A stretch of 64,000 bases of DNA from Rhizoctonia solani (Eukaryota > Basidiomycota > Agaricomycetes > Cantharellales > Ceratobasidiaceae), in assembly GCF_016906535.1 (NCBI RefSeq), contig NC_057370.1, positions 1,674,001 through 1,738,000 of the forward strand, written 5' to 3'. Under the pieces are notes generated by a model, which worked only from the letters and a program-made list of their open reading frames with translations, had not been told where the DNA came from and searched no databases. This document shows positions 24,492-35,236 of this stretch, in pieces. A program made the translations under genes and the position numbers. Position 1 is the first letter of the stretch; each line of letters opens with the position of its first letter.

Positions 24492-25623
24492 ATGTCTGAT
24501 TCTGCCACGGTAAGAACGGGGGGTAATATACGCTGGAGCCGTTCGGTGCTAACCTTTGAGTGTCTGTAGCCCTCGTTGAGTCTCCCATCTCCTCTGAGCG
24601 AGGAGCCACGTACAGTACTGAGCATATCGACCACTTTCTATCCGGGCGCGCCAGAAACCGAGAAATCGGATCTATGGCTATCGTCGAGCGATGGAGTATT
24701 CTTTTTTGTTCAACGGAGCCGCCTACTAGAGGGCTCGTCAAATTTATTCGGGGGGTTATTGCTGTCGTTGGAGGAGAAAAGAAAACAGACAAAGGTCGCG
24801 CCATCAGTGCACGAGAGCCCGATAGCAGAGGACATATCGATCCTTGACCCGACAATTGATCTCAACTCGATATCCGCAGTTGAAGACACCGTGTTCAATA
24901 TCCCCGAGGCAGACGAGGATGCACCGCCGGTCATCCCGCTATGCGAAGAGGCAGCATTGTTGAATATCATCTTGCTTATCATATACCGTCTGCCAATGGA
25001 GCGATATCGGCCGGATTTGCAGTTGATGTGTCGAGCGGCCCCCGCCCTCGTATCCTATGGCTACCGTCTCGAGAACCTCATCTCGCCAGCTTCCGAAGCA
25101 TTCCGTCTTCTTATCGCCCATTCTATTACCCATCCTCTCGTCGTCTACGCCCTTGCTGCAGCCTACAACCTCGACTCATTGGCCGTAGCCTCGAGCAGGA
25201 ACACGTTGGGCATCGAGTTGTCGCAGATTACCGATGATCTAGCCGGCGTTATGGGTCCGATATACCTACGGAGGCTATTTTGTGAGTCAAATCATCGAAT
25301 GGCGCGGGCGTAACTCACATCTGTAATCAGTCCTCCATATGGGAAGAACAGATGCCCTCAAACGCTTACTACTCGAGCCACCTGCGGGCCACATGCCTTT
25401 ACCTCAGTGCGGTCCCGACGATCAAAAATCCCTCACGCGGGCGTGGGCATTGGCTATCGCATACATGACCGTCGAAGCCAAGCCCAACACCCATGCTACC
25501 ATGATAAGCTCCGGGTTGAGTGCATTAGGTGAACATCTCGAGTGTCAAAAATGTCGAGCCTGTCTTGATGAGCGAATACAGACCATTGTTCAACAATGGT
25601 CTATGGTCGGATCCACTATATGA
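24492..25623 (+). CDS. BTB/POZ-like protein of the Agaricomycete type
   Basis: Three exons join in phase: 24492-24509 (six codons, MSDSAT), 24570-25281 and 25331-25623. The start of exon 2 has EKSDLWLSSSDGVFFFVQRSRLLEGSSNLF, which follows the BTB pattern of D-hydrophobic, S-D-G-V-x-F, then a short helix. Residues 120-240 form a helical region (EEAALLNIILLIIYRLP; LVVYALAAAYNLDSLA), and the last exon has two Cys pairs (CQKCRACLDER). Proteins like this form large families in Agaricomycetes and are usually annotated as BTB domain-containing; their partners are unknown. The 18-nt first exon is supported by a good donor (GTAAGA) and acceptor (CTGTAG) and by continuity of frame. Confidence 0.7.
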
Positions 25624-26120: not shown

Positions 26121-27332
26121 CTACAATCGAATCTCGCGAGTATGTAACGCTGCCTTTCGAACGCGGTTCATCACGGCCAAGCCCTCCTTGGTTTCGTCAA
26201 CTGCTTCGACAAAGATCGTATCTGCCCCGTCTTGTTCAAGTGTAATCAACCCATGGAAGAGATTGCGTGCTGCTTGAGCAGGTTGATGGATAGATCCCAA
26301 CGAGTGGCGTATGAATGTATGCGTAGGCGGTCTGTCAAGGGCACCGATAGCTCCCCGCAACGGTGAGTCATCGAGCAAGAGTAAGCCAATCTTACGTGGC
26401 CCGGACGTCGCACCGGACATAAACGAATCGATCACCGTCTGGAGCTCTTCTCCCATTCGCGACTTCTCGCCTTGTGGAACCGGGACGAGCAACACAACCG
26501 GAACCCCGGGAGAATAATGTCGGTACTTCATCCCAGGTGTAGTCGGGGCATTTTCGAGCGTCTTGTCCGCATAATCCCTCTGATGGACTAGCACTCTAGT
26601 CTCAGGACCCACAACCCGTTCGATCTGCTCGACCGTCACTCCTCCAGGACGCAGTATTCGTAAATGGCCATCGGCTCCGAGACCATCTACAACCGTCGAT
26701 TCGAGCCCCACATCGCACGGCCCGCCGTCCAAAATAATTCCAACCTTTCCCCGAGCTCCAAGGTCCCGCTCTACATGAATCGCCCGAGTAGGACTAGGAG
26801 ATCCGCTGGTGTTTGCGCTTGGTGCTGCGAGGGGCGCTTGAGACGTTGCAATCAGCGCCCGAGCGATCGGATGTGACGGCATGCGTATCGCAACAGTCGG
26901 ATGCCCAGCTGTGGTGATCGGCGGTACAACAGCTGGATCCGCAGGGAAGATCAAGGTCAAAGGACCAGGCCAAAACGCATGAATCATTCGTTCGTAGGTC
27001 TTGGGGAGAATAAATCCCGAAGGAAGTAATGTATATAGCATTTGCAAGTCGGAGACGTGTACGATTAGAGGGTTGTCTGATGGACGTCCTTTAGCACTGA
27101 ATATCCGCTGAACTGCTGTGACGTCGAGAGCGCTTGCTCCTAGACCGTAGACCGTTTCTGTTGGAAAGACTACTACTTGGCCTTGAAGTAGCTCTTCAGC
27201 TGCAGCTTTGATAGCGGTACGGGTTTCGGTGTCGTTTATGACATGTCTAGAGGTCGAGGGAGATGGAGAGTCGAAATTGACTAAAGAAGGATCGCACTTT
27301 AGAACTCGAAGGGGGTGGTGGTTGACCGTCAT
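26121..27332 (-). CDS. SUA5: Threonylcarbamoyl-AMP synthase (Sua5/YrdC family)
   Basis: An intronless gene of about 403 residues, unusual in this intron-rich window. Sua5 makes threonylcarbamoyl-AMP from threonine, bicarbonate and ATP for the t6A modification at position 37 of ANN-decoding tRNAs. Visible family elements: GQVVVFPTETVYGLGASAL, FSAKGRPSDNPLIVHV (K-x-R-P...N-P-L motif), APSANTSGSPSPT (S-x-N), VGLESTVVDGLG, and a C-terminal Sua5 domain after a linker carrying APTTPGMKYRHYSPGVPV. The N-terminal ATG at 27332 (MTVNHHPLRVLKCDPSLV) is the first ATG in frame; an upstream GTG extends the frame by 19 residues but is unlikely to be used. Confidence 0.93.
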   Translation of the reverse strand: MTVNHHPLRVLKCDPSLVNFDSPSPSTSRHVINDTETRTAIKAAAEELLQGQVVVFPTETVYGLGASALDVTAVQRIFSAKGRPSDNPLIVHVSDLQMLYTLLPSGFILPKTYERMIHAFWPGPLTLIFPADPAVVPPITTAGHPTVAIRMPSHPIARALIATSQAPLAAPSANTSGSPSPTRAIHVERDLGARGKVGIILDGGPCDVGLESTVVDGLGADGHLRILRPGGVTVEQIERVVGPETRVLVHQRDYADKTLENAPTTPGMKYRHYSPGVPVVLLVPVPQGEKSRMGEELQTVIDSFMSGATSGPRKIGLLLLDDSPLRGAIGALDRPPTHTFIRHSLGSIHQPAQAARNLFHGLITLEQDGADTIFVEAVDETKEGLAVMNRVRKAALHTREIRL

Positions 27333-28106
27333 GACACCAAAGGACAGGCGTAGTCGATGAAATAGGATATATCGTGGTAGAATTTTCACGATGAGAGCTA
27401 GTGATGTCCAAGTCTTTTGATATAATGTGGTGGTACTGGGATAGTACGGGTGAACACCCAGCTATACGGTCTCACTTTGCCAACATACCAATTCGATAAT
27501 ACGGCCAGTGTTTAAGGCAATAAGGTGAATTGATCAGATAATAAGTTTAAGCAGTAACGTAGCAGTACTCGATAAACGAAATTTGCATGGTACTAAAGTT
27601 AACGCTTGGATGAATCATTCTAATTTAACTGTTAGTCACGTGGAGTCCGATCAGTTTCAATGTCATATAGCCGAAGATTGCATTTATCGATCATAAATTC
27701 GGCAGCAGTTGATCAAATGCGAAGTCTAACTCTCGACTCTAGCTCAAGTTCACCCTCTTAAAGAGTCTCCCATTGAACTCATTAAACAACACATATCCTC
27801 AATTCCGTTTCGTCCCTTGGTTGGCTTCGAATTCAACATGCTTCAAATATACGTTCGGTGCTCGTATGCCAGCTCCTATATCTCCCGCACCACTGGTGTT
27901 GATCTTGAACCAAAAACGTCAGGAAAAATAGCCCACTGATCTTCTCATTTCGAAATGGGATTGAAAATAGTTTAGAGTACCACTATATAATGTACATATA
28001 TCGCCTTAAAGTAATGAGGGACGGGATCTGAAGTGAGATGGTAAAGCTATGATTATTACCTTCCGCCGTGTAAATGTTCTTTCCAGACACCCTCGTTAAT
28101 TATTTT
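27333..28106. other. Intergenic region between SUA5 and the NLR-like gene
   Basis: About 770 bases, rather AT-rich, holding the SUA5 promoter and the 3' end of the TPR gene. No open frame with family content is visible. Confidence 0.4.
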
Positions 28107-31100
28107 TTAGAAAATCCAGGCTTTCTCTATTATATTCAGGTCTGCAAAACAAAGTGGAGATCCCAAACTGTAAGCGGGAAATGTACAAGGCTCGAAACAC
28201 ATGCAACTTACCTCCAACCTATCAGAAGGGTTACCAGCACACTCTCGGTGGGTTTGGATTCTTGTGATCAGCCCCCTAGCGTGATTAACCCATGGATGAT
28301 TCTCGCCAAATACCCGGATATAGTCGTCAAGATTGATTTGTAGGTTTCGTGCTTCCTGTGTAAGCCCAAGGTGTAAATAGACGTCTGCAATGTCGTGGAT
28401 GCTCTTGAGTGTTTCGGGATGGTCATTACCCAGCACTCGCTTCTTTGTGTCGACTACCTGAGCGAACAGAGCTCGTGCGTCCTCGTATCGACCAAGGGAC
28501 GAGTAGCTTCCTGCGAGCTCGTGCATGCTTATCAGTGTATCCGGGTGGTCGTTACCCAGTACTCGCTTCGTTGTGTCGACTACCTGAGCGAACAGAGCTC
28601 GTGCGTCCTTGTATCGACCAAGGGACGAGTAGCTTCCTGCGAGCTCGTGCATGCTTGCCAGTGTATCCGGGTGGTCGTTACCCAGCACTTGCTTCTTTGT
28701 GTCGACTACCTGAGCGAACAGAGCTCGTGCGTCCTCGTATCGACCAAGGGACGAGTAGCTTCGTGCGAGCTCGTGCATGCTTGCCAGTGTATCCGGGTGG
28801 TCGTTACCCAGCACTTGCTTCTTTGTGTCGACTACCTGAGCGAACAGAGCTCGTGCGTCCTCGTATCGACCAAGGGACGAGTAGCTTCCTGCGAGCTCGT
28901 GCATGCTTGCCAGTGTATCCGGGTGGTCGTTACCCAGTACTCGCTTCTTTGTGTCGACTACCTGAGCGAACAGAGCTCGTGCGTCCTCGTATCGACCAAG
29001 GGACGAGTAGCTTTGTGCGAGCGCGTGCATACTCGTCAGTGTATCCGGGTGGTCGTTACCCAGTACTCGCTTCGTTGTGTCGACTACCTGAGCGAACAGA
29101 GCTCGTGCGTCCTCGTATCGACCAAGGGACGAGTAGCTTCGTGCGAGCTCGTGCATGCTTGCCAGTGTATCCGGGTGGTCGTTACCCAGCACTCGCTTCG
29201 TTGTGTCGACCAACTGAGCGAACAGAGCTCGTGCGTCCTCGTATCGACCAAGGGACGAGTAGCTTCCTGCGAGCTCGTGCATGCTTGCTAGTGTACGCGG
29301 GTGGTCGTTACCCAGCACTCGCTTCTTTGTGTCGACTACCTGAGCGAACAGAGCTCGTGCGTCCTCGTACCGGCCAAGGGACGAGTAGCTTCCTGCGAGC
29401 TCGTGCATGCTTGCCAGTGTATCCGGGTGGTCGTTACCCAGTACTCGCTTCGTTGTGTCGACCAACTGAGCGAACAGAGCTCGTGCGTCCTCGTATCGAC
29501 CAAGGGACGAGTAGCTTCCTGCGAGCTCGTGCATGCTTGCCAGTGTATCCGGGTGGTCGTTACCCAGCACTCGCTTCGTTGTGTCGACCAACTGAGCGAA
29601 CAGAGCTCGTGCGTCCTCGTATCGACCAAGGGACGAGTAGCTTCCTGCGAGCTCGTGCATGCTTGCTAGTGCGCGGGTGGTTGTTACCCAGCACTCGCTT
29701 CGTTGTGTCGACCAACTGAGCGAACAGAGCTCGTGCGTCCTCGTACCGGCCAAGGGACAAGTAGCTTTGTGCGAGTCTGTGTATGCTTGCCAGTGTATCC
29801 GGATGCTCATTGCCTAGCACTTGCTTAAGGCTTTCTTGAACGTAAACATGTAGCCTCTCTGCCTCCTTCCATTGCCCCCTTTTTTCGTAAACCCTAGAAA
29901 ATACTAACGCTTGATCTGTCCCAATCTTCTCGGTTTGTTCTGGAAGCACTCCACTGACATGAAGCCCAACGCTCATAAGAAACTGAATTGATTCTAGACT
30001 CTCATCCACACAACTCGCAGCCGACATAGCGAGTAGACTTCTGGCACATTCTGCTGTCATATCCTTATACGGGGCAACCGTACGGACCCAGTCCTGTACG
30101 AGTGGGTGGATTCGATACCCTTGGTTTACGTCCTCATATTCAAGCAGCGAGCGCGATAAAATCTCGTTGAGAACTCCCGAGAATGAAAGTCCATTCCAAT
30201 GTTTATCTGTACCCAGGAACGTGCCTAACAGGTCCTCTAGCTTCCTTTGTGCCATATTTTCGAGTTCTGTGGTGGGGAATCTGGGCCTGTAAGACGTGAT
30301 ATAGCTCGCTGCTCTCCTGAATATGTTAATCGTAATCCCGGTATGGTGTAGGAATGAGATCAGCGAGAGTAGCTGTTGAGCTCGTGGGCTGAGTACATTG
30401 TAGCACATTAGCCAGGTCGTATATACAGTATGCCCATAGTTGTCGGTCTTGACTACCGCTGAGAGTTGGCTGTACGCTTCCAGTGCTTCCTGTCGTTGCT
30501 CGATGAACAGGGATCGGTACTCAGTGATCGACATAGAGACTCCAATAAACGATCCGGCATGTACAATAGCAAGTGCAAGTAACCAAGCTCCTGCGACCGA
30601 CTTGAGACAAACGTTTGAGTATAAACACACGCCTTACCTCAAGCAGAGTGACGGCATTATCTATTTCTTCGGGGGGTATTCGTTGATTTTGTCGACGTGC
30701 GCACTTTAGCAATAGCGTCAGTGCATCCTTGGATTCATGCTCGATACGCTGCATTCCGCATTCGTTCCTCGTGCGAATGATACCATTCCAGGCAAACGGG
30801 TAGTAATAATTACACTTCCGTGATTGCCTCTAGGCATGTATTCATGGATAAGGATCGGGTCATCCGCGTTATCGAGCACAAGTAGCCATGGTTCACGGTA
30901 TGATTCAAGCCTGAAGAACGGAATGATATGTGTTACCAATACCATTGGCTACTGCTACGGCCTTTAGCATGGTCTCAATCGATTGCCGGGTGCTTGCGTC
31001 GATGTATATGACCTCTTTCCAGCTGTCGTATGTTCGCTCGACGACCTTGAGGACGAGCTGCGTGCCTGCGCCTCCGATTCCATACACAACGCAAACTTTA

Positions 31101-32490
31101 CGCTCCCTTTCGGACCCGAGAATAGACAACTCGGCGCGGCGTAGCTTTGGCTCGCAGCCTGTGAAATGGGTGTCGGTGCTGGCACCGCTGTATCGCTGGA
31201 GTAGCATCGACTGCTGCGATCCAAATTTCGCCATCTGTGAATGAAGTGGTTGGAGAGTATGGTAAAATGTAGGTAGCACTATACCGATCCGAGCTGTGGG
31301 AGCAGCTTCTTTCCGTAGACGAATTGCCTCCGTAGCCTTGTCCATTACTTGTTTAACTTCTAGCATCCTCATATATGCGCGTGTATGCTCTGCCACCTCG
31401 CTTCGCTGGTCCCATTTATTCATCTTAACAATCTGCATTCCTTGGTCTACACTGAGTCGAAAGTATATCCCGCTCGTCGAGCTGAATCGCCTAGCCATGT
31501 CCTCTGCCACTTTTTCTGCATCCTCTGCGATGTCTTTCATTGCTTGTATCGCAGTCGTGGGTAGTAGCTGACACAGCATGGACCTATCGGGGACTTGGAT
31601 CGTGCGCGCAAGGCCAGTACCAATACTCGTTACAGAGGATACATGTCGTTCTGGGTATACCATCTTTGCCTCGATTAGTACATGAGCAAGAGGATTATTG
31701 CATCCAAGCCCTGCGTCAACGAACGACTGCTTCAGCGATGGACTACCAATGTCAAAGCTTTTGAACAGATCCGGGTGTGCCATGGTCGCACAGAGGGCCT
31801 CCCATATAGCGCATCTTGGACCTTCATTAACGACAGCAGGATAAGATCGAAAGGCAGTGGGTATACCAGCTCTCATGTTGTACCTTGACATAGCAAACAC
31901 CAGACTATAAGTCAATAGATAAGTATACTGGAGTTTTGCCCATCGGTTTTTTTTTCTTACGTTCTGCACTGTGTTCCTGTGGATTGGCTCTCCATTATTG
32001 GCTCTTCTGGGTTCCCAGTTATCTTGTATCTCCATAAGTGAATCCTTCAGCTTTGATGTCTTGAACGTTAACGTTCCTGACCGACTGAACCACTTTCTTT
32101 CCGAGAACACCTTTGTCAGTTTCGCGTATGATTCGATGGCTGAATGAACCGGCATGCGCAACCTTCCTAGCATGCATGCCTGTACCTTCATGGGATGGTA
32201 CCAATTAACCATATACCAGCAATATTTTGACCTGGAACGACTTACGCGCCTGTACCAGTGCCAGCGATGAGGTCAAAGTATTGGTAAGGGCTTGGTGTCG
32301 ATTCGAGGTTCTCCTGGTGTTGTCCGCTTCATTAGTTCCTCTATTATTATAAGGGCTGATAGCCTCGTGCACCTCCGCCGTCTAGAGTCAGGGACCAGGG
32401 ATTAGTTTGAAGGAAGAAGATGGGATTGGGGACAAGTGTACCTATAGACAAGATGTTTAAACCTTTACCAGAGGGCTTCGGTTGAGACAT
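28107..32490 (-). pseudogene. Patatin/NB-ARC/TPR (fungal NLR-like) gene, frame broken
   Basis: Architecture of a fungal STAND/NLR protein. The ATG at 32490 opens GKGLNILSI, an intron, then DGGGARG of a patatin-like phospholipase domain (32490-31250), including AGTGTG where a catalytic serine would normally stand, SRYNMRAGIPTAFRSY, ALCATMAHPDLFKSFDIG and FVDAGLGCNNPLAHVL. Then an NB-ARC module (31230-30640): GIGGAGTQLVLKV (P-loop without its lysine), WLLVLDNADDP (Walker B), GSVIITTRLPG. Then a helical linker and TPRs (29900-28240) of the 42-residue kinesin-light-chain type, eleven nearly identical. Reading-frame breaks are needed at about 32390 and 32290 (patatin), possibly about 32240 at the exon junction, about 30730 (NB-ARC end) and 29669 (a 2-nt loss in a TPR unit). 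Such proteins are thought to sense non-self and trigger a lipid-hydrolase or cell-death response. As printed it cannot make one full protein; sequence errors are the main alternative to decay. Confidence 0.75.
28440..29815 (-). repeat. Eleven-unit 126-bp tandem TPR-coding repeat
   Basis: Units start at regular 126-bp spacing; the string GGGACGAGTAGCTT on the plus strand recurs near 28495, 28621, 28747, 28873, 28999, 29125, 29251, 29377, 29503, 29629 and (as GGGACAAGTAGCTT) 29755. Each unit encodes 42 residues with core SYSSLGRYEDARALFAQ and a VLGNDHPDTLASMHELA segment. Units differ at only a few positions. Degenerate units flank the array on both sides. Confidence 0.95.
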
Positions 32491-32982: not shown

Positions 32983-34922
32983 CTATTTAGCCAGCTTTGC
33001 AGCCTTTTTCGCATGTCTCTTCGCGCTTCCCAAACTCCGAGTCGTGCAGTTCCTAGACATCAACTCTATAAGTCAAATGCATACATTTTAGGTGTATGCT
33101 TACCATGTTGGCGATCCGTTTAGCCGTCGATACCGCATTCAGTCCTTCTAATACCTTTTCTTCGGTAGACTAAGTTCGGTCAGTGTGTGCCTGTCATACC
33201 TGGGTAAGCCACAATCCAAGCTAAATCACCCACCACCAATCCGCGCTTCGACCTTGTGTATCTCTCTTCATCACGTTCAGTCACAAAGCTAATCGCCATC
33301 CCATTCCGGCCCGCGCGAGCAGTCCGCCCAACACGATGCGTATACTCCTCGGGCGCACCCGGAAAATCCCAGTTCACGACCAACGCCACGTCTGCGATAT
33401 CCAACCCACGCGCGCCCACGTCCGTACTGATCAACACCGGGACGACTCTCGAGCGGAACAGGTTGAGCGAGTTGAGTCGTTCGCGCTGTTTTAGCCGCGA
33501 ATGGAGCGCGGTGGCGCGTATGCCGAGCGTTTGGAGTAACTTGGCGAGGTATGCTGCTGTTTTGGGTTTCGAGACGAAGATGATGGTGGGTGGGGGCTGT
33601 TGATTGTGTCTTGGTCGACTTTGGGAGGTCTGAAGGCTTTATTGACTTTTTTGGATTTGTGTGATGGTTCTTGAGGCTCGGGGGCGGCCACGCGCATGTG
33701 TGCTATTGACTCGGGCGGGTTACAGAGCGCATAGAACAGGTATGGCTCTCGGACGTGAGATGGGACAAGTAGGTAATGCTGCTTGAGAGTACCGACTGTT
33801 TCCACACTAGATTGTAACTCAGTATGCACGGATACCGGAACAAGGCGGTCGCATACCTATCTGTCTGTATACAAACGGCGTCTGTTTCCCTGGCTGAGGG
33901 TGGCATTGGCAAGGCTCTCGACTGCCGGTGTCCATGTGTCGCGGTAAACAAGCAGGTCTGTCTGTCCTTTGGAGTTTTCGATAGGATCTTCGCTAGGTCT
34001 TCAGCAAAGGTATCGGTCAATAGCCGGTCGGCTTCATCAAGCACCTTGTTTGTCATTAGTAACACAGACACATATAGATTAGACTTTGATGACATGCTAC
34101 CAGGAACTTGAGTCTTGACAGGCTCCATTCACTCCCGTTGCTGTCCATATGGTCCACCAATCGACCGGGGGTAGCTACAACCACATGGGTCTCCTTCCCA
34201 GCTCGAGCGCTTGTTCCATCATGTCCATTCCACCTACGATCACCGCTGTCCTCAAGTTCAATGACCTCCCAAGACTACGAACTGCTCGGATATCTGGAAC
34301 GCCAATTCCTGCGGCTTGATTAGCCTCGAATAAAGGTTAATAACGCCGCTTGCCTGGTAGGTGTAAGCACCAGTGCATAGATACCGTACGGGTCCTCTGA
34401 TAATTTCTGTAATATCGGAATAGCAAATGCCATAGTTTTACCCGAACCTGTCTTGGCGTTCCCGATAGTCCCTGCCTACACTCATATGTGAACTTTGTCT
34501 GTAGAAGCCAAGCAAAAGGCGTACCTGATATTATCGACGGCAGACATCCTATCTGAAACAGGCGTAGGTCTCCGGATCGACATGGCCTCCAGAGATGTGA
34601 CTAGTGAAGGCTTGACACCAAGTGAGCCGAATGTGACGTCTTTAGGAGCTGGAGGCTGTCGTGCGAGTTGCGTTCTGTTAGTTTTAGTCACTCGGTTAGG
34701 AGCTGTATCGAATTTGAACTGTAATTTTGGGGCATCGTCTTCAGAGTCGGAAAGCTCAGGATGGACAGATCGTTTGGTTCGACCAGAGTCTATTCCAGTG
34801 TCAGAGTCTGAAGCGTCGGATGATCCAGCGTGAGAGGAAGAAGAGGCTTCAGAAATAGCCTCAGAGCTTTCAGATAGCCTCCTTCGTTTGAGTCGCGGTC
34901 CCTCACTCAAGTGGGCGGACAT
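32983..34922 (-). CDS. DBP8: DEAD-box RNA helicase, Dbp8/DDX49 family, frame interrupted
   Basis: Dbp8 is a nucleolar helicase for 40S subunit assembly. After a Ser-rich, acidic leader the helicase motifs appear in order: [16 protein letters not shown] with RRPTPV (Q motif), [10 protein letters not shown] (Walker A), [11 protein letters not shown] (Ib), VLDEADRLL (DEAD), CLFTAT (SAT variant), [67 protein letters not shown], then the family's C-terminal [20 protein letters not shown]. The frame changes at several points with no splice site: an extra T in the Q motif (about 34555), near 33930-33880 after CLFTAT, at about 33605 before TIIFVSK, at about 33255 (one A short), and near the stop. Since Dbp8 is essential in yeast, base errors are more likely than a dead gene. 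Its start lies in the proximal copy of a 204-bp duplication. Confidence 0.8.
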
Positions 34923-34961
34923 TACAGTCGGGTGGTAGAGAAATCAAAGCAAATTTGGTAT
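34758..34961. repeat. 204-bp direct repeat, proximal copy
   Basis: Identical by eye to 34966-35169 (offset 208). It covers the DBP8 start codon and the first ~54 codons plus upstream bases. Confidence 0.93.
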
Positions 34962-34965
34962 GGTA

Positions 34966-35169
34966 AGGATGGACAGATCGTTTGGTTCGACCAGAGTCTA
35001 TTCCAGTGTCAGAGTCTGAAGCGTCGGATGATCCAGCGTGAGAGGAAGAAGAGGCTTCAGAAATAGCCTCAGAGCTTTCAGATAGCCTCCTTCGTTTGAG
35101 TCGCGGTCCCTCACTCAAGTGGGCGGACATTACAGTCGGGTGGTAGAGAAATCAAAGCAAATTTGGTAT
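34966..35169. repeat. 204-bp direct repeat, distal copy
   Basis: Second copy, 4 bp after the first. It carries a second copy of the DBP8 ATG (35130) whose frame runs 75 codons, reads into the intervening sequence and stops at 34903, overlapping the proximal start. Confidence 0.93.
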
Positions 35170-35236
35170 TGGTAATTAGAAAGCTGCAATCGAGCACAGC
35201 CACTTGATGTGTTTACCATTCTGACGCCAACACTCC

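What the first reader, a model, noticed from the sequence alone, without database searches (positions are those of the whole stretch)
28107..32490. Fungal NLR-like gene (patatin, NB-ARC, TPR) that looks interrupted
The domain order is that of fungal NOD-like receptor candidates. Seen: DGGGARG and FVDAGLGCNN (patatin), WLLVLDNADDP (NB-ARC Walker B), KLC-type TPRs. Family knowledge: such STAND proteins are linked with non-self recognition in fungi. Seen: several frame breaks. Inferred: it could be a dying or swapped-out allele.
Basis: partly seen in the sequence, partly recalled or inferred. Interest (0 to 1): 0.75.

Follow-up and report, generated by a model that had tools for sequence, protein, structure and literature searches.

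The report
Fungal immune-type receptor, inactive lipase domain
This is a fungal immune-type receptor gene of the Rhizoctonia group whose front domain has the shape of a fat-cutting enzyme but lacks the key cutting residue, as do nearly all its relatives examined from that group; the breaks that made it look dying are more likely sequence errors.

Summary
The minus strand, 32490 to about 28107, encodes a patatin-like domain, an NB-ARC ATPase and about 11 near-identical TPR units; relatives are mostly Rhizoctonia and Ceratobasidium proteins. Some apparent breaks are short introns. About ten more remain, all apparent losses of one or two bases, with no in-frame stop.

"Dying allele" is not favoured. 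The neighbouring DBP8-like helicase, the only close copy in this genome, shows about five similar breaks and a 208-bp near-exact duplication. Three paralogues read unbroken against the same relative. Sequence error is likelier, but only reads can prove it.

The parts
31285..32490 (-). patatin-like domain over four exons, with introns 32382-32441, 32186-32245 and 31905-31960 inside it and 31235-31284 after it
   Evidence: frameshift- and intron-aware alignment to P0001 and P0006, 70 and 76% identity; homologues carry PF01734
32248..32277 (-). nucleophile elbow FDLIAGTGTG: glycine where the GxSxG serine is expected
   Evidence: window row; family comparison
31700..31726 (-). catalytic aspartate site SFVDAGLGC; the aspartate is present in this copy
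30591..31234 (-). NB-ARC region: P-loop GIGGAGTQ, in which the usual lysine is absent in this sequence, and Walker B WLLVLDNADDP; intron about 30591-30637
   Evidence: the missing residue is Lys405 of P0001
29827..30590 (-). linker region with a DUF7779 match and a first TPR-like repeat
   Evidence: PF25000 E 5.1e-8; TPR_12
28408..29826 (-). TPR array of 126-bp units, 95% identical on average within the array (9 of 11 units compared), 53-71% to arrays of four own-genome paralogues; one unit near 29670 carries a frame break
28107..28407 (-). C-terminal end of the open frame; the gene end is uncertain
33180..35100 (-). neighbouring DBP8-like DEAD-box helicase with about five similar frame breaks, used as a control (not part of the receptor)
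   Evidence: the name DBP8 is recalled from the order of its motifs
34758..35175 (-). 208-bp tandem duplication, 205 of 208 identical, at the 5' end of the helicase gene
26121..27461 (-). Sua5/YrdC-type gene, unbroken frame, control on the other side

Best explanation
The locus is a member of an expanded Rhizoctonia/Ceratobasidium family of NLR-type STAND receptors: patatin-like domain, NB-ARC, DUF7779-type linker, homogenised TPR array. The front domain keeps the patatin fold but not the catalytic machinery: the serine most likely became glycine once, in an ancestor of the family, and the aspartate is lost in most members. Inferred mechanism: the TPR array senses a ligand or a guarded protein, the NB-ARC domain exchanges nucleotide and oligomerises the receptor, and the clustered pseudo-patatin domains act as a non-catalytic module that recruits or switches on another protein; the standalone patatins of the same fungi, which keep serine and aspartate, are the first candidates. 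Shown here by sequence or prediction: architecture, family-wide loss of the serine, retained fold in a relative, signs of purifying selection, array homogenisation. Inferred: sensing, oligomerisation, recruitment, any role in non-self recognition. The frame breaks of this copy are most likely errors in the sequence, not gene death.
Against: No activity, expression or interaction data. Gly at the nucleophile is strong but not absolute evidence of inactivity. The recruitment step has no direct support. The fold was predicted for relatives, not for the window protein. The helicase breaks were read by eye; only 4 of its 9 pieces matched Pfam, and no close helicase homologue was at hand to align. 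The stop/frame-break tests are post hoc and small. The absent P-loop lysine would fit real decay as well as error. dS is near saturation, and branch estimates are erratic: the L048 branch gives 1.05 overall and a negative dS in the patatin part. A homopolymer test of the error idea was inconclusive. Paralogue L047 has one frame break of its own.
Confidence: 0.6

Rival explanations
1. The gene is a real pseudogene or dying allele.
For: About ten frame breaks and an absent P-loop lysine; the family does lose members in this genome: L051, L052 and L054 carry stops and frame breaks.
Against: No in-frame stop in 532 aligned codons; window-branch dN/dS about 0.10, a rough figure; the sole DBP8-like helicase next door shows similar breaks. 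A heterokaryon could tolerate decay of both genes in one nucleus type, which is not excluded.
Confidence: 0.25
2. The patatin-like domain is still an enzyme, using another residue as nucleophile (for example a threonine of GTGTG) or another chemistry.
For: The Gly-centred elbow is nearly uniform and the DGGGxRG loop is kept in 73 of 86 Rhizoctonia/Ceratobasidium P-loop proteins where it is readable, so the site is constrained; 16 of the 129 keep the Asp.
Against: 104 of the 129 have Gly at the Asp column; where the elbow is readable too, these have neither dyad residue except P0012. Patatins are Ser-Asp enzymes (recalled).
Confidence: 0.12
3. The pseudo-patatin is an integrated decoy: it mimics a lipase that parasites or viruses attack, and damage to it triggers the receptor.
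For: Fold retained in a relative and low dN/dS, without catalysis; plant NLRs use such decoys (recalled).
Against: It takes the effector position at the N terminus, and no attacker is known.
Confidence: 0.2
4. [not shown]
For: Same domain order as PLP-1 as described in PMC12881547 (passages).
Against: The catalytic serine is absent in this copy and in 105 of 106 relatives.
Confidence: 0.05

Closest known systems
[not shown]
   Same: Patatin, NB-ARC and TPR in PLP-1 (review passages).
   Different: There, cell death depends on patatin activity; here the serine is glycine family-wide. The primary paper (doi 10.1073/pnas.1719705115) was not held; that the Cryphonectria gene has this architecture is recalled, beyond the patatin NLR mentioned.
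Patatin-NB-ARC-TPR proteins of Pseudogymnoascus, Lachnellula, Mycena, Agaricus and others
   Same: Same architecture, found with P0084.
   Different: 54 of the 63 P-loop-bearing proteins not named Rhizoctonia or Ceratobasidium keep Ser and Asp.
Flagelloscypha patatin receptors P0327, P0330, P0331, P0332, P0335
   Same: Gly/Gly at both sites; inside the 138-tip branch with support 92.
   Different: Far off on the tree, nearest tips outside the five at about 1.9, so shared or independent loss is open.
HET-D/HET-E NLRs with high internal conservation of repeats
   Same: Homogenised sensor repeats, ascribed to concerted evolution in PMC12222747 (abstract and passages).
   Different: HET, NACHT and WD40 there; patatin-like, NB-ARC and TPR here.
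CapV and CapE, bacterial patatins
   Different: Catalytic, nucleotide-activated, no NB-ARC or TPR (recalled).

Membership tests
Fungal NLR-type STAND receptor | N-terminal effector-type domain, central NB-ARC or NACHT, C-terminal repeats in one gene | tested here: met
   full-length relatives
Fungal NLR-type STAND receptor | Intact P-loop (GxxGxGKT) | tested here: inconclusive
   The lysine is absent in the window sequence but present in relatives such as P0001; the stretch may hold sequence errors
Fungal NLR-type STAND receptor | Ligand-induced oligomerisation and cell death | not testable with these tools
   needs an experiment
Catalytic patatin-like phospholipase (PF01734) | Patatin fold | tested here: met
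   [not shown]
Catalytic patatin-like phospholipase (PF01734) | Ser of GxSxG | tested here: not met
   GTGTG in 32248-32277
Catalytic patatin-like phospholipase (PF01734) | Asp of the dyad | tested here: met
   FVDAGLGC in this copy; Gly in 104 of 129 Rhizoctonia/Ceratobasidium P-loop proteins
[not shown]
   read
[not shown]
   no partner search was made
NLR with high internal conservation of repeats | Units more alike within the array than to other arrays | tested here: met
   0.95 within (9 of 11 units), 0.53-0.71 to four other arrays

The most novel reading that the evidence does not exclude
A whole, expanded receptor family in the Rhizoctonia group has turned its effector enzyme into a pseudo-enzyme that works as a homotypic recruiting or nucleating module: the receptors sense, and separate standalone patatins with an intact dyad carry out the killing. 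It would be a sensor and helper division of labour reached by loss of catalysis.
Probability: 0.25. Interest if true: 0.82.

Novelty: new variant of a known kind. Interest (0 to 1): 0.57.

Why it matters
Patatin is listed among the enzymatic effector domains of fungal NLRs, and its activity is reported as needed for cell death in PLP-1. A large family that keeps the fold, and keeps glycine at the active site, means the Pfam label alone misstates how these receptors act. It gives a natural test of what the patatin domain does besides hydrolysis, and may bear on how Rhizoctonia strains tell self from non-self. It also warns that breaks in an NLR gene should be checked against neighbouring genes before they are read as gene death.

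Tried and rejected
Considered and rejected: all breaks are introns (five introns found, about ten breaks remain); the dying allele as first choice (see rivals); GTGTG as a mark of decay in this copy only (it is family-wide and present in paralogues that read unbroken against P0001).

Led nowhere or inconclusive: PDB sequence search with the patatin/NB-ARC ORF, best E 0.22; homopolymer depletion as a mark of base loss; paper searches for an inactive patatin in fungal NLRs (no paper; one cotton paper); the primary PLP-1 paper was not held. Rfam, PHROGs, NCBIfam and PADLOC were not used.

Limits: searches list the best 120 of 129, 352 and 314 hits. Of the 335 proteins, 294 matched the patatin profile at the thresholds used and 41 did not. 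Genera were assigned by me from the source names in those listings; two of the 63 'other' P-loop proteins (P0247, P0304) have no source name. NB-ARC linkage in the counts was judged by a P-loop pattern, not by a domain scan. Searches were seeded with Gly proteins, seeded with a Ser/Asp protein (P0084), returned two Rhizoctonia receptors in its best 120 (P0307, P0220), both Gly. Against P0121, L048 gave one frame break that it did not give against P0001; L053 (standalone patatins) gave two frame breaks against P0001 and two with one stop against P0121, at 41-42% identity, which is ambiguous; L054's elbow was not readable. Two of the 11 TPR units of the window, those at the break, were left out of the identity figures.

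Full report
What is there. The window is G000:C1:1674001-1738000 of a 40.7 Mb, 16-contig genome. The nearest relatives of the gene are named Rhizoctonia solani or Ceratobasidium, so the host is taken to be of that group; no tool named the species. The gene runs on the minus strand from about 32490 to 28107. The open frames give TPR_10 at E 1.8e-146 with 11 stretches, a DUF7779 match, and sub-threshold Patatin and ATPase_2 matches. P0001 covers 93% of ORF 30905-32272 at 60% identity and carries Pfam Patatin and NB-ARC. Full-length relatives join patatin, NB-ARC and TPRs in one protein, for example P0121 with 1254 aa.

Introns and breaks. A script that aligns a protein to DNA while allowing GT-AG introns and frame jumps placed introns of 60, 60, 56, 50 and 47 nt after residues 17, 63, 138, 345 and about 550 of P0001. 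Paralogues L047-L050 have introns at the same residues. Beyond these, the window gene has eight breaks against P0001 (near 32361, 32323, 32246, 32020, 31198, 31166, 30910 and 30728), one near 30580 against P0005 and P0121, and one in a TPR unit near 29670. Each fits a loss of one or two bases relative to the relatives; two lie at intron edges. Over 532 aligned codons no in-frame stop was met. The P-loop lysine (P0001 Lys405) is also missing in this copy.

Is it dead? Four points speak against it. First, the adjacent DEAD-box gene (33180-35100) breaks in a similar way. Four of its nine pieces match Pfam, in changing frames: DEAD at profile positions 17-57, 92-122 and 122-161, and Helicase_C at 12-110. 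Read by eye, about five breaks leave no room for an intron. It is the only close copy in the genome, the next best match being 40% identical. Its start lies in a 208-bp tandem duplication, 205 of 208 identical. That it is DBP8, and essential in yeast, is recalled. Second, elsewhere in the window a Sua5/YrdC-type gene aligns in one frame over residues 83-438 and a histone deacetylase exon over 134 residues. Third, with the same script paralogues L048, L049 and L050 show no break and no stop against P0001, L047 shows one break, and L051, L052 and L054 together show 8 stops and 12 breaks against P0121. 0:10 in the window gene against 8:12 gives Fisher p 0.02, and 0.005 with the helicase's five added; with P0001 as the only query the counts are 0:8 against 5:6, p 0.04. 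These tests are post hoc and small. Fourth, the window branch has dN/dS about 0.10, but dS is near saturation and the L048 branch is erratic (1.05 overall, negative dS in the patatin part). I take sequence error as the likeliest cause. Decay in one nucleus type of a heterokaryon is not excluded.

The pseudo-patatin. The nucleophile elbow reads FDLIAGTGTG, with glycine where GxSxG needs serine. Of 335 homologues from three searches, 294 matched a patatin profile. Among Rhizoctonia/Ceratobasidium proteins with a P-loop (129), 106 have a residue at this column: 105 Gly and 1 Ser. The aspartate column of the 129 has Gly in 104, Asp in 16, Ser in 4, His in 3, Glu in 1 and a gap in 1. None of the 106 has both Ser and Asp. 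Of 42 without a P-loop, 10 keep both. Of 63 P-loop-bearing proteins not from these genera, 54 keep both, 5 are Gly/Gly (all Flagelloscypha), 2 Gly/Asp, 1 Asn/Asp and 1 gap/Asp. In the own genome, read from DNA, 7 of 7 receptor loci with a readable elbow have Gly (the window, L047-L052), while 6 of 6 other patatins examined (two in L053, and L044, L055, L056, L057) have Ser.

One loss, then constraint. On a tree of 246 tips with both sites masked, all 106 receptors lie on one side of a branch with 132 tips and one Ser (support 72), and 105 of 106 lie beyond a branch with support 99. Nucleophile state changes 10 times, against 66 or more in 200 shuffles. The replacements are not random: GTGTG, GSGTG or GAGTG in 102 of the 106, VGGEL-like residues at the aspartate site, and DGGGxRG kept in 73 of 86 where readable. 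Pairwise dN/dS over the patatin part is 0.14 for L047-L048 and 0.13 for L048-L049. This looks like conservation of a non-catalytic form, not drift.

Repeats. Units of the window array are 95% identical on average to each other and 53-71% to arrays of four paralogue loci; two of those arrays are also homogenised (0.92, 0.90) and two less so (0.73, 0.63). Concerted evolution of sensor repeats is described for het-d and het-e in PMC12222747 (abstract and passages).

How it likely works. In PLP-1, cell death depends on patatin activity and on the P-loop (PMC12881547, passages). This family can hardly do that by the same chemistry. I infer that the NB-ARC still clusters the receptor and that the clustered pseudo-patatin binds or switches on another protein, most simply one of the active standalone patatins. 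An integrated decoy or a lipid-binding role are alternatives. None of this is shown.

Novelty. Patatin receptors of fungi are known (PMC4986451, passages; PMC12258605, passages). Searches for an inactive patatin in such receptors found nothing, within an open-access library only. I rate it a new variant of a known kind.

Noticed in passing
window 34758-35175: 208-bp tandem duplication, 205 of 208 identical, at the 5' end of a DEAD-box helicase gene that also has about five frame breaks.
   Followed up: partly
L051, L052 and L054 (all on contig C7): Three decayed receptor paralogues with stop codons and frame breaks, all on one contig.
   Followed up: partly
L047 and L048 (C13): Two receptor paralogues about 8 kb apart whose synonymous distances do not add up (L048 branch near zero or negative), which hints at gene conversion or saturation.
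   Followed up: no
P0327, P0330, P0331, P0332, P0335: Flagelloscypha patatin receptors are Gly/Gly too, with a VGGEL motif like that of Rhizoctonia.
   Followed up: partly
P0113, P0114, P0115, P0117, P0118, P0120: Patatins of 620-659 aa, five from named Ascomycota and one unnamed, with GTGTG and a DEG aspartate site, apparently a separate serine loss.
   Followed up: no
P0012 (Ceratobasidium sp. 423): The single receptor with Ser at the elbow (GSSTG) lacks the Asp and sits among Gly/Gly proteins, so it looks like a reversion.
   Followed up: no
window 24570-25313 (+): Open frame of 247 aa without a Pfam match.
   Followed up: no
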